Virus record (IMG/VR): IMGVR_UViG_3300015366_000172
Coordinates: 1 to 24,619 of that record
Length of the DNA: 24,619 bases
Source: a virus
Direction: 5' to 3' (one strand)
The position numbers and the translations under genes were made by a program. The notes beneath the pieces were generated by a model, which worked only from the letters and a program-made list of their open reading frames with translations, did not search any database and had not been told where the DNA came from. Positions 18,158 through 22,408 of the stretch are shown here, piece after piece (the first letter of the stretch is position 1; every line of letters starts with the position of its first letter).

Positions 18158-20047
18158 TTACCTATTTCCCCATCGAGAACCTGACATCCAACTTGGTCGT
18201 GCAAATTTTGGTGGGTCAGTCATATTGCTATGAAATAAATTAGGCGCGTTCCAAATTAAGAACCAATGCGCCATAACGGTATCGTCGGTTGATCCTTCAG
18301 GCCATTGAATAAGTTCTTTAACCATTGGCTTCATGGTTGCTTTAGAACCAATGTAATCGCCACCGCCAGGGAAGCGAACGCGGCCAGCTTTATAATGCGG
18401 GGCAAGGGTTTGAACACCAAAGTCCTCATCGGACTTATTGCGGTTAGTTTGATGCGGAACAAGGCTGACATTGCGGATTGCTGCCCACCGTTTGAAATGG
18501 TCGTACTGAAGCATAAAGCGTTGCGCCGCGTTAGCCTCAACAATCAGCGTGGTAAACGGATGACCTTGATCGTTAGCGCGTTGCCACCATTCCTCAAGCA
18601 ACCCTGTGTACTGGCGCGTATCTTGGTTAAAGTCCAAAAAGTCAGGAGCATCCATAGGCGAGCGCACCAAATCAACCAAATGCTGCATTTGAGTTTCTGC
18701 TGAGTAAGCCCACCATTGAACCGCCCAATACTTTGTAGGAGACGGATCAGCAGTTACCACCGAGTAAGCGTTGATACCAACAGGCCATTTACCGATGATT
18801 CGATCCTCATCCCAAGATCCTTGGTGCATGACACCGGTTGAATCTTGCCCACCGTCAATCCATGCTGGCTGGATCAAGCTCGCTGCTTGATCTACATCTT
18901 CTTGTTGATAGAGAGTCTGAAAGCGATCTAAACGATTTTTTTTAATTCGGGCTAGTTCACGCCAAGGCAATCTGTATTCATCTAAAAGACAACCCGCAGG
19001 GTAGTTGCCTTTGTGTACCCCACCGTTTTTTTCTGCTTCGCATAGTTCATCGTAATGTGATTTGTAAACAATGTGGTGATATTTTTTGGGTGCTTTTTCA
19101 GGGGTTTCTTCAAACTCTTCAGACCAGTCAACAAGGTTAAGTGCGTACCGGTACAGATCATCTGATGCCATGCGCTGACCTTGAAGAATTAAAAGCCCAC
19201 CTGGGTCAAGTCGTGTCTCGGCTTCTGTTTCCCACCAACTGATGAGGTTTTCTCTTGATTCAACTGTACGAATGTTTGTTTTATCAACAAGGTCATCCCA
19301 AATAACTGTGTCGAATCGCCCACCCAAGAAACCTGAATCCATACCGTATGCGACGAAGTTTGGTTCTTTGTCGTCAACCGCCACTCCACCATCTTGCGCC
19401 AAAATAAATTCCTCAAGTCGCCATAAGTCTGAGTTGCTTGGTTTGAATCTTCCAAAGTCTGTGATGAGAGTTGATTTTGCATCTACCGCTAAGCCTTTCT
19501 CAAAGAGGATTGGGTCAGCTTTAACTGGGCTGACGCGTTCAAAGGTACGACGAATACGACCTGTGTATTTAACTGCTTGTCCTGCTGTACGAGAACCGAT
19601 CATAGTTCTACGGGAACGGTCACGGACTGCAAGCCACACCGGAAAGTCGTGTGTCCATGTGGTTGACTTACCAACGCCAGGGGGACAGTTGATAACAACA
19701 TATTCTTTGTTGGGGGTAGCCGCTAACTCAAGCATTTTGTATGCAGCTTCTTCAACCCAAGGAGAAGTAGAACGCGCAAAGTAACGCTGACGAAAATACC
19801 CAAAATCTTCTATCGCTCTTTGTGCATCACCTTTGACATCATCAATTCCAAAGACACCGGCTTTTTCAAATCCAAACTCGCCAAGAACTCGATTGAGTCT
19901 GGAAGTTGGAATTGGCAATTGACGCATGACAGATGAATAACTAATGCCAGCCATCTGCGCAGCGGTTCGCTGTGAGTGTCCTTCGCTGACTGCCTTTGCG
20001 TACTTGCGCCAGCGTGTGTCATCAATGCGTTTGTTACTGTTGCTCAT
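18158..20047 (-). CDS. terL: Terminase large subunit with N-terminal helix-turn-helix
   Basis: I prefer the ATG at 20047 (629 residues), though the frame opens with TTG at 20056. Residues about 15-45 contain a helix-turn-helix pattern (YAKAVSEGHSQRTAAQMAG, SYSSVMRQL) as in small-subunit terminases. The ATPase has Walker A CPPGVGKST (about 121-129), Walker B VIWDDLVD (about 248-255) and the coupling motif ILQGQRM (about 287-293). The nuclease half shows the acidic residues of the RuvC-like fold: TADPSP (Asp about 434), LIVEANA (Glu about 505) and TDDTVMA (Asp about 588/589). It packages DNA into the prohead through the portal. No separate small-subunit gene is visible beside it, so the N-terminal domain may take over DNA recognition. 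Confidence 0.93.
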   Translation of the reverse strand: MSNSNKRIDDTRWRKYAKAVSEGHSQRTAAQMAGISYSSVMRQLPIPTSRLNRVLGEFGFEKAGVFGIDDVKGDAQRAIEDFGYFRQRYFARSTSPWVEEAAYKMLELAATPNKEYVVINCPPGVGKSTTWTHDFPVWLAVRDRSRRTMIGSRTAGQAVKYTGRIRRTFERVSPVKADPILFEKGLAVDAKSTLITDFGRFKPSNSDLWRLEEFILAQDGGVAVDDKEPNFVAYGMDSGFLGGRFDTVIWDDLVDKTNIRTVESRENLISWWETEAETRLDPGGLLILQGQRMASDDLYRYALNLVDWSEEFEETPEKAPKKYHHIVYKSHYDELCEAEKNGGVHKGNYPAGCLLDEYRLPWRELARIKKNRLDRFQTLYQQEDVDQAASLIQPAWIDGGQDSTGVMHQGSWDEDRIIGKWPVGINAYSVVTADPSPTKYWAVQWWAYSAETQMQHLVDLVRSPMDAPDFLDFNQDTRQYTGLLEEWWQRANDQGHPFTTLIVEANAAQRFMLQYDHFKRWAAIRNVSLVPHQTNRNKSDEDFGVQTLAPHYKAGRVRFPGGGDYIGSKATMKPMVKELIQWPEGSTDDTVMAHWFLIWNAPNLFHSNMTDPPKFARPSWMSGSRWGNR

Positions 20048-20249
20048 CAGGCTCAATTCTTGCGTGTAGGTATCCAGTTACATTTGTTATGTACAGGTGG
20101 TGAAAAAAATGCTTGCGCTTAATATGATTTTTTAAATCTAATGTCCATAGATCAAGCGCATCCATAAATACAACGCTTGGGTAACTCTCAGACTTCCAAG
20201 CGCATTTAGGACAATGAGCGCAATACTTGCCATCAATTAATTCAAACAT
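20034..20249 (-). CDS. Small Cys/His (zinc-finger-like) protein
   Basis: The ATG at 20249 gives 71 residues and overlaps the end of the upstream ORF (ATGTTTGA), which suggests coupling; a TTG at 20270 would add 7. CAHCPKC at residues 10-16 gives three Cys, and the later LKNHIKRKH with further HH could complete a zinc site. It overlaps the start of terminase by 14 bases. Possible DNA-binding or packaging accessory; no family is recognised. Confidence 0.6.
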   Translation of the reverse strand: MFELIDGKYCAHCPKCAWKSESYPSVVFMDALDLWTLDLKNHIKRKHFFHHLYITNVTGYLHARIEPDEQQ

Positions 20250-20388: not shown

Positions 20389-20422
20389 TATGGATCCTTT
20401 CGTAATGTTTAAACCCTATCAC

Positions 20423-20450
20423 TTGCAAGTCGTGTAATTGATGCTATTGT
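20423..20450 (+). promoter_or_regulatory. Candidate promoter for structured RNA
   Basis: TTGCAA (20423-20428) and TATTGT (20445-20450) are separated by 16 bases; each matches 4 of 6 consensus bases. Transcription would start near 20457, exactly where the first hairpin begins. The match is modest; position makes it credible. Confidence 0.35.
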
Positions 20451-20456
20451 TCCCAT

Positions 20457-20930
20457 ACTGCTTCGGCAGGTCTTTAAAAAAACTTAATAATGGCAGCGCG
20501 GCACACCATGTAAAAAACCGCGCACACTACTGACTCTAGTGTGGCCCCGTTTGATGGGTAAGTCTTTACTGTCCAAATGTTGCTTGGCAAAAGGTTAGCC
20601 ACCGAGGAACTCCTGAGAGCAAGGGAGTTAAACAGCGAGTATCTATTAGCTCATAAACACGAATCACCTTATGAGCATTACAACAACTAATAGATTACAT
20701 ATAGCGTGATTGGGAGTAATCCCCTATCTAAAAGATAGTCCTTTACTAAGGCTATCTATGTTCACCACCGGTTAATCAGTTACCCCGCGATTAGTTGGTG
20801 GCTTTAAAACCATTACTCATAGATGAGAGATAGCCTTAAAGCTACACGATAAACTTGAGTCACACCGACTCAACTACGACTGGTCAATAGGTTACGCTGA
20901 TGACATATAGTTCATAGGGTGATATGACCA
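20457..20930 (+). ncRNA. Candidate large structured noncoding RNA, undescribed class or GOLLD/ROOL-like
   Basis: About 470 bases hold twelve mutually compatible helices: C(UUCG)G hairpin 20458-20469; GCGCGG/CCGCGC 20496-20501/20518-20523; CACACTA/TAGTGTG 20523-20529/20537-20543; AACTCC/GGAGTT 20608-20613/20624-20629; a two-part helix ATCTATTAG/CTAATAGAT (20641-20649/20687-20695) around CTCATAA/TTATGAG (20650-20656/20669-20675); GGGA-GUAA-TCCC 20712-20723, stacked on CTATCT/AGATAG 20724-20738; an 11-pair helix 20747-20757/20828-20838 enclosing a 13-pair hairpin 20765-20777/20789-20801; TTGAGTC/GACTCAA 20855-20861/20867-20873; TGGTCA/TGACCA 20881-20886/20925-20930. The 13-pair hairpin uses three G-U wobbles, which would be C-A mismatches on the minus strand, so the RNA is read from the plus strand. 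Loop 20780-20785 (TTACCC) could pair with GGGTAA (20556-20561), a pseudoknot. Boundaries are approximate. GOLLD and ROOL are known large phage-linked RNAs; identity to either cannot be seen. Confidence 0.7.
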
Positions 20931-21141
20931 AACCTGCGCGCCCCCACCCTCGGCACATACCCCGTCAAACGATCTTAACTAGACATAATCTAAAAAAAAG
21001 TCTAACCGCCTAAAAAATATCTCTCTCCTAAGCAGTACAACTAGGGCGAACATTCAAGCGATACCCCTAGCAATTAACACCCCACCCCCTCGCAAGATAT
21101 AACTATTACAGATAACGGGCATCGGACTACTAGGGAATAAA

Positions 21142-21705: not shown

Positions 21706-21860
21706 TGAAAGTTAACTATCCACTAACACAATTAATAGACGCTAACGGTTATTTATGGATAAGCGCCGAATTGTCTCCCGCTAAATTAAAGAAAATTATC
21801 CGCGCCTATGAATTAGCCGGTGTCGAATTATTTCAATTAGCCGGAAAGGTTGCCGCATAA
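21705..21860 (+). CDS. 51-residue unknown protein
   Basis: The ATG overlaps the previous stop (TAATG), and the stop overlaps the ardA ATG the same way, so it is coupled on both sides. The sequence MKVNYPLTQLIDANGYLWIS...LAGKVAA has a hydrophobic-amphipathic C-terminal helix (AKLKKIIRAYELAGVELFQL). No motif is recognised. It may assist or regulate ArdA, but that is only position. Confidence 0.6.
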   Translation: MKVNYPLTQLIDANGYLWISAELSPAKLKKIIRAYELAGVELFQLAGKVAA

Positions 21861-22408
21861 TGACTATTACAATGCAGGACACCGACACCCCTAGCGCCTG
21901 GGTCGGCTGTTTAGGGTGTTATAACAATGGACACTTATTCGGTAAATGGTTGCCCGGTAATGTCTGCGATGATCTCGAAGCTGCGGGGTTAGCCCGAATC
22001 GAAACTATCGGGGATTATACGGCGGCCCGGTGCGTTAAATGCGGCGGGGATGAATTTAACGTGTTAGATCACGAAAATTTCGGCGGACTATTATCTGGCG
22101 CATGTAGCCCGGCGGAAGCTCGCGAAGCTGCCGAATTATGGGAGCAAGCGCCGGAAAGTGAGCGCGAAGCCTGGGCCGCTTATCTCGACAATATCGGCAA
22201 GGGTGCTACATATTCCGACTTCCAGGAAAATTATATAGGCGAATTTAATTCGGATTATGAGCTAGCCGAAGAATTCGCTAATGAATGCGGGCTATTGGAT
22301 GAAATGCCCGAATCCTTGCGCCGATATTTTGATTTTGACGCGTATGCCCGCGATCTTATGTCTGGCGATATATGGGCAAATTCGGGCCACTATTTTTGGA
22401 ATCGGTAA
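21860..22408 (+). CDS. ardA: ArdA-type antirestriction protein
   Basis: A 182-residue acidic protein. The N-terminal WVGCLGCYNNGHLFGKW (about 14-30) and the C-terminal YIGEFNSDYELAEEFANECG, then FDFDAYARDLMSGD and HYFW, fit ArdA proteins, which mimic B-form DNA and block type I restriction enzymes. ArdA is usually about 165-170 residues; this one is slightly longer and carries CVKCGG (58-63) plus the CLGC pair at 17-20, so it may bind zinc. It would protect incoming phage DNA. It has an overlap with the preceding gene and is followed 3 bases later by a membrane peptide. Confidence 0.87.
   Translation: MTITMQDTDTPSAWVGCLGCYNNGHLFGKWLPGNVCDDLEAAGLARIETIGDYTAARCVKCGGDEFNVLDHENFGGLLSGACSPAEAREAAELWEQAPESEREAWAAYLDNIGKGATYSDFQENYIGEFNSDYELAEEFANECGLLDEMPESLRRYFDFDAYARDLMSGDIWANSGHYFWNR

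What the first reader, a model, noticed from the sequence alone, without database searches (positions are those of the whole stretch)
20457..20930. Candidate large ornate noncoding RNA at the divergent arm junction
Twelve compatible helices in about 470 bases, including a C(UUCG)G hairpin, a GUAA loop, an 11-pair long-range helix enclosing a 13-pair hairpin, and a possible loop pseudoknot (TTACCC with GGGTAA). G-U wobbles fix the RNA to the plus strand. No good protein gene explains the region. Large phage-linked RNAs such as GOLLD and ROOL are known, mostly without assigned function; this could be a relative or a new class.
Basis: partly seen in the sequence, partly recalled or inferred. Interest (0 to 1): 0.9.

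Follow-up and report, generated by a model that had tools for sequence, protein, structure and literature searches.

The report
Phage origin-type structured noncoding RNA
This lake-virus sequence encodes a real, intricately folded RNA that belongs to a widespread and apparently undescribed family, and its core module recurs inside the RNA-driven replication origins proven for some mycobacterial phages, so it probably helps start viral DNA replication.

Summary
The structured RNA is real. Homologues lie upstream of the terminase large subunit (TerL) gene in about 18 freshwater phage contigs. No Rfam family matches, including GOLLD, ROOL, tmRNA and introns.

A shorter RNA of the same design occurs in at least 38 bog, marine and lake phages, mostly 80-110 nt before a conserved cos-like motif. 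Its central module (hairpin H2, then hairpin H3 with loop GUYAGA) also occurs in cultured mycobacteriophages: exactly once in each 50-kb stretch of Gladiator, Alma and RedRock, each time inside the experimentally defined RNA-based replication origin and on the strand of its noncoding RNA. A covariance model built only from aquatic phages gives a single hit across those 150 kb: the RedRock origin.

Best explanation: an initiator RNA for phage DNA replication, related to those origins, placed next to cos. The structure is near certain, the kinship likely, the replication function inferred (about 50%). Packaging or regulatory roles are not excluded.

The parts
20413..20418 (-). leftward extended -10 (TAGGGT) of the divergent promoter towards TerL
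   Evidence: pattern TGnTAGnnT kept in aligned relatives; promoter role inferred
20423..20450 (+). rightward promoter: TTGCAA, 16 nt, TGcTATTGT; RNA start predicted near 20457
   Evidence: TGcTAnnnT conserved with variable flanks in relatives; not mapped
20458..20469 (+). 5' hairpin CTGC(TTCG)GCAG
   Evidence: sequence; replaced in relatives by compensated hairpins with a GGGGAA loop
20490..20523 (+). H-type pseudoknot PK1: 20490-20493 with 20506-20509, and 20496-20501 with 20518-20523; A-rich loop
   Evidence: compensatory changes in both stems
20524..20542 (+). hairpin H2
   Evidence: 5 of 6 pairs with changes on both sides
20546..20558 (+). hairpin H3: CCC-GUUUGAU-GGG, the module shared with B-type RNAs and mycobacteriophage origins
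20570..20589 (+). hairpin H4 (CCAA/TTGG core)
   Evidence: alignment by eye, stem letters change together
20641..20695 (+). helix a (20641-20649 with 20687-20695) enclosing hairpin b (20649-20656 with 20669-20676; G20649 can join either)
   Evidence: covariation in 14 sequences
20662..20711 (+). loop pseudoknot PK2: 20662-20667 with 20706-20711
   Evidence: AATCAC/GTGATT, AACTGC/GCAGTT, AAGTTAC/GTAACTT, TCGC/GCGA, GTCTC/GAGAT, GAGC/GCTC in relatives
20712..20723 (+). hairpin c with GNRA loop (GUAA)
   Evidence: GCAA, GAAA and compensated stems in L002, L007, L010
20747..20838 (+). long-range helix 20747-20757/20828-20838 and enclosed hairpin
   Evidence: present; no covariation support beyond near-identical relatives
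20890..20930 (.). conserved ATTAC...GGTGATA element, RNA or DNA; kept in L069 and L104, which lack the large RNA
20948..20968 (.). cos-like motif CCTCGGCACATACCCCGTCAA
   Evidence: conserved upstream of TerL in distant relatives; cos role inferred
18158..20056 (-). terminase large subunit with long N-terminal extension
   Evidence: PHROG 38, E 1.8e-55
21860..22408 (+). ArdA antirestriction gene, in the rightward arm beyond the cos-like motif
   Evidence: PF07275, E 1.1e-25

Best explanation
The stretch encodes a free-standing noncoding RNA of about 270-480 nt, transcribed from its own extended -10 promoter away from TerL and towards a cos-like site. It belongs to an actinophage RNA family whose other members include the noncoding RNAs of RNA-based replication origins. 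Most likely it folds around the pseudoknot PK1 and the H2-H3 module and starts phage DNA replication without an initiator protein, either by supplying a primer in the manner of ColE1 RNA II or by loading host replication factors on the transcribed duplex. Shown here: the structure, the family, the position, and the presence of the H2-H3 module in proven origins. Inferred: transcription, the replication role, and the primer or loading step.
For: (1) Covariation: domain 1, 93.9% of cells paired, score 0.441 against 0.176 shuffled; domain 3, 89.4%, 0.730 against 0.231; 0/500 shuffles reach either. (2) A model of W-type domain 1 alone (R1) gave, beyond its own family, 14 weak hits in 400 kb; 10 fall exactly on B-type RNAs, which links both types. 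(3) A model of A+B domain 1 (R2), built without mycobacteriophages, gave one hit at E<=10 in 150 kb of Gladiator, Alma and RedRock: RedRock 27576-27622 minus, E 0.028, inside the origin 27232-27897 and on the ncRNA strand. (4) A GTYAGAD hairpin with four Watson-Crick pairs occurs 3 times in 456 kb (both strands), once per mycobacteriophage genome, each inside the published origin on the ncRNA strand. LadyBird, Phlei, First, Steamy and Gordonia phage Daredevil carry it with covarying stems. (5) PMC7157519: about 600 bp there, with the ncRNA and no required ORF, supports autonomous plasmid replication; deleting the transcribed region from Alma or LadyBird destabilises lysogens. (6) A near relative encodes WhiB, the actinophage marker.
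Against: The proven function is for the whole ~600-bp origin, not for the H2-H3 module. The module also lies near the right end of Mundrea-type phages (192 records match that stretch), far from parABS, so it may serve another purpose there. R1 alone finds no origin in those mycobacteriophages; W is linked through B-type relatives, and W's own H3 loop is GUUUGAU, not GUYAGA. No parABS was seen next to W's RNA, and a relative carries a small replication-initiator-like fragment (phrog_270) and an XerC-like recombinase. In B-type phages the downstream linker is C/A-rich and G-poor, unfavourable for a ColE1-like G-rich hybrid. Alma without its ori region grows lytically as normal (PMC7157519).
Confidence: 0.5

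Rival explanations
1. A packaging or cos-linked RNA: it acts at the cos-like site or on TerL, in the way phi29 pRNA serves the phi29 motor.
For: In B-type phages the RNA end lies 78-108 nt from the motif in 20 loci, while the TerL-to-RNA distance ranges from 394 to 2455 nt. W's promoter is divergent with the TerL-side promoter. W-type and B-type RNAs each map to one TerL clade.
Against: TerL relatives L064, L069, L104 and L070-L072 keep TerL and the motif without a recognised RNA. The module also lies mid-genome beside parA in mycobacteriophages, far from cos and TerL. No Rfam pRNA match.
Confidence: 0.17
2. A regulatory or leader RNA: the nascent RNA or its stable product controls early transcription across the ligated cos, or acts on the host.
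For: In W and most loci examined, rightward genes follow the motif. Related cluster A phages L5, D29 and StarStuff make an abundant stable early right-end ncRNA that is toxic to M. smegmatis (PMC5712189), and the Mundrea-type copy sits at a similar place.
Against: No intrinsic terminator or other expression platform was found on the plus strand. The D29 right-end region lacks the H3 module.
Confidence: 0.22
3. A member of a known large phage-linked class such as GOLLD or ROOL, or tmRNA, or a self-splicing intron.
For: Size, ornate fold, lake phage origin.
Against: No Rfam match at gathering level or up to E 10 over the region, nor in B-type relatives at this locus.
Confidence: 0.02
4. A conserved DNA element (extended cos or origin DNA) whose hairpins matter as single-stranded DNA, with no functional RNA.
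For: Tight spacing to the cos-like motif; the element at 20890-20930 is kept without the RNA.
Against: A promoter sits at the 5' boundary in both types; G.U pairs exceed A.C pairs; the mycobacteriophage counterpart is transcribed from this strand (PMC7157519).
Confidence: 0.05

Closest known systems
Noncoding RNA of the RNA-based prophage origins of non-RepA parABS mycobacteriophages (RedRock, Gladiator, LadyBird, Alma; PMC7157519)
   Same: H2 hairpin followed by H3 with invariant GUYAGA loop and covarying stem, about 60-90 nt from a promoter; large intergenic RNA divergent from the neighbouring gene; actinophages.
   Different: Those lie beside parA in mid-genome; W's lies between TerL and a cos-like motif. 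W adds PK1 and PK2 domains that I did not demonstrate in mycobacteriophages. W's H3 loop has U instead of A at the fourth position.
Right-end early (Pleft) noncoding RNA of cluster A mycobacteriophages (PMC5712189)
   Same: The Mundrea-type copy of the module starts near a TTGACA/TAGCGT promoter about 590 nt from the right end.
   Different: D29, where the RNA was studied, lacks the module, so this is positional resemblance only.
ColE1 RNA II
   Same: Would work alike if the RNA is a primer (inference only).
   Different: No sequence or Rfam match; G-poor linker in B-type relatives.
phi29 pRNA
   Same: RNA gene near a genome-end site, reading towards it.
   Different: About 174 nt, phi29-like phages only, no Rfam match; module also found away from packaging genes.
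GOLLD and ROOL RNAs
   Same: Large ornate phage-linked RNA.
   Different: No covariance-model match.

Membership tests
RNA-based origin RNA of parABS mycobacteriophages | H2-H3 module (GUYAGA loop, covarying stem) in the transcribed strand | tested here: met
   B-type: met in 38 loci and found by R2 in RedRock. W-type: same architecture, though W's own loop is GUUUGAU.
RNA-based origin RNA of parABS mycobacteriophages | Location beside parA/parABS | tested here: inconclusive
   Neighbours identified in W are TerL and ArdA; no ParA among the proteins scanned, but the record is a fragment and not every gene was scanned.
RNA-based origin RNA of parABS mycobacteriophages | Noncoding RNA is expressed | not testable with these tools
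   Promoter conserved; no transcript data at hand.
RNA-based origin RNA of parABS mycobacteriophages | Segment suffices for autonomous replication without a protein | not testable with these tools
   Shown for the mycobacteriophages in PMC7157519 only.
GOLLD / ROOL (Rfam) | Covariance-model match | tested here: not met
phi29 pRNA (Rfam) | Covariance-model match | tested here: not met
ColE1-type RNA primer origin | G-rich RNA forming a persistent hybrid at the origin, processed by RNase H, extended by Pol I | tested here: inconclusive
   B-type linker is G-poor (8% G); mechanism itself not testable.
cos site (the DNA motif) | Physical virion DNA ends at the motif | not testable with these tools
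   Only position beside TerL and conservation; no cultured close relative with known ends.

The most novel reading that the evidence does not exclude
A previously unnamed superfamily of pseudoknotted initiator RNAs starts DNA replication in many actinophages of lakes, bogs, oceans and soil. The proven mycobacteriophage prophage origins are one branch, and in the aquatic branch the RNA is built next to cos, so that replication start and packaging site form one module.
Probability: 0.33. Interest if true: 0.9.

Novelty: new variant of a known kind. Interest (0 to 1): 0.8.

Why it matters
RNA-only initiation of phage replication is known from a handful of mycobacteriophage origins with no published structure that I could find. 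This work gives those RNAs a conserved structural core, a covariance model, and well over a hundred relatives in cultured and uncultured actinophages, including viruses of aquatic bacteria that are hard to culture. It makes the mechanism directly testable: the invariant H3 loop, its stem and PK1 can be changed in existing laboratory origin plasmids. It also warns that a bare cos-adjacent 'noncoding gap' in such phages can hold an essential RNA.

Tried and rejected
Rfam searches of the window, W-type and B-type relatives and mycobacteriophage origins found no family for this RNA. blastn against cultured phages with W's region: none. Capsid and TerL scans of bacterial genomes: none. Streptomyces phage Immanuel3 ends: terminal repeats, no motif. 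The isolated Nanopelagicales phages E7 and F5 lack RNA and motif. Quhwah ends were fetched but not analysed. The D29 right-end ncRNA lacks the module, so I dropped the idea that it is the same RNA. Alma's origin has no match in plasmids. Some structured gaps upstream of distant TerL genes (L078, L108) are repeats or other structures not shown to be related.

Full report
WHAT WAS CHECKED. The window is a 24.6-kb fragment of an IMG/VR virus record. The candidate lies in a 1.1-kb gap without credible genes, between the leftward TerL arm and a rightward arm with ArdA. The plus strand of 20457-20936 folds better than all of 100 shuffles (z -3.84); the minus strand gives -2.09. Rfam gives no family, at gathering level or up to E 10.

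HOMOLOGUES AND COVARIATION. Scanning viral contigs with TerL brought 23 relatives. The RNA region is conserved upstream of TerL in most that reach far enough, plus one contig found by DNA pattern (L026). On plain MAFFT alignments, domain 1 (PK1, H2, H3) has 93.9% of cells paired and 12 of 19 pairs with changes on both sides; domain 3 (helix a, hairpin b, PK2) has 89.4% and 20 of 24. No shuffle of 500 reaches the pairing percentage or covariation score, and partners slid by 1-3 columns drop to 25-53%. PK2 alone shows at least five different base-paired versions: AATCAC/GTGATT, AACTGC/GCAGTT, AAGTTAC/GTAACTT, TCGC/GCGA, GAGC/GCTC.

THE DNA AROUND IT. A motif (GGCACA, 2-3 nt, CCCCGTCAA) just downstream is conserved upstream of TerL even in relatives with 40-57% TerL identity that lack the large RNA. 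I read it as cos by position; physical ends were not tested.

THE SECOND TYPE. Distant TerL relatives carry a shorter RNA in the same slot. It has PK1 (absent in marine members), H2, H3 with loop GUYAGAR, PK2 (0.361 against 0.157 shuffled, 0/500) and a 3' GGAGGGACCCAGGG element, 78-108 nt before the motif in 20 loci. The downstream linker is C/A-rich (C/G ratio 6.2 against 1.3), the composition of a Rho-utilisation site, which would end the RNA near the motif (inference). R1, a covariance model made only from W-type domain 1, finds 10 of these B-type RNAs among its 14 weak extra hits in 400 kb; single E-values are 0.08-7, and related loci are not independent, but at least five lineages are hit at the exact place. 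TerL trees put W-type and B-type in one clade each. R2 adds a clear member in a third TerL lineage, L096 (E 3.2e-4), there reading towards TerL, and weaker ones in L086 and L204.

LINK TO A KNOWN FUNCTION. A pattern scan for H3 hit isolate genomes, which proved to be cluster A mycobacteriophages. One, Steamy, has it next to parA. PMC7157519 defines RNA-based origins there: about 600 bp left of parA, a noncoding RNA transcribed opposite to parA, no required ORF, sufficient for plasmid replication; removal of the transcribed region destabilises Alma and LadyBird lysogens but leaves lytic growth normal. In Gladiator, Alma and RedRock (50 kb each, both strands) a GTYAGAD hairpin with four Watson-Crick pairs occurs exactly once each, always inside the published origin and on the ncRNA strand. 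R2, which contains no mycobacteriophage sequence, gives one hit at E<=10 in these 150 kb: the RedRock origin, E 0.028. The stem covaries among origins (GCCC/GGGC, GCCG/CGGC, GTCC/GGAC, CCCG/CGGG) while the loop stays. I could not find a published structure for these RNAs.

INTERPRETATION AND LIMITS. That W encodes a structured RNA is near certain (about 0.97). That it shares a module with the origin RNAs by descent is likely (about 0.8). That it starts replication is inferred (about 0.5). Against it: the module also occurs near the right end of Mundrea-type phages, where its role is unknown; W's own H3 loop departs at one base; no parABS was seen; relatives carry a small replication-initiator-like fragment. 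A packaging role is attractive for the aquatic members because of the fixed distance to the motif, but does not fit the mid-genome mycobacteriophage copies. How the RNA would act (primer or loading platform) is open; the G-poor linker speaks against a close ColE1 copy.

Noticed in passing
L069:2741-2802 (-): Hammerhead ribozyme type II (51.5 bits, gathering 37) at one end of a 952-nt noncoding gap upstream of TerL, about 0.7 kb beyond the cos-like motif.
   Followed up: no
L064:1217-1296 (+): An 80-nt tmRNA match (61 bits, above gathering) in a phage contig related by TerL; much shorter than a full tmRNA.
   Followed up: no
L345 (Mundrea 50035-51257, minus strand): The H3 module follows a TTGACA/TAGCGT promoter about 590 nt from the right end; 192 mycobacteriophage records match that stretch, with no annotated feature there.
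   Followed up: partly
L096:3634-3695 (+): Clear R2 hit (E 3.2e-4) in a TerL lineage without other recognised RNAs, oriented towards TerL rather than away from it.
   Followed up: no
L352 (Gordonia phage Daredevil, about 3.5 kb from its left end): A 90-kb Gordonia phage carries the module (CCCG-GTCAGAG-CGGG) near its left end beside an HNH endonuclease gene.
   Followed up: partly
window:21137-21260 (+): Repeated GGGGATAA words in the 500-nt gene-free stretch beyond the cos-like motif; GC skew turns near 21.4 kb. Possibly origin DNA.
   Followed up: no
L039:8492-9022 (+): Proteasome/HslV-like peptidase gene in a close relative of the window's phage.
   Followed up: no
window:18158-20056 (-): TerL has about 110 residues with a weak helix-turn-helix match before the ATPase motif, perhaps a fused small-terminase-like DNA-binding part.
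   Followed up: no
window:20714-20724 and RedRock/Steamy origins: The 11 letters GAGTAATCCCC occur both in W hairpin c and in a downstream hairpin of the RedRock and Steamy origins; may be chance.
   Followed up: no
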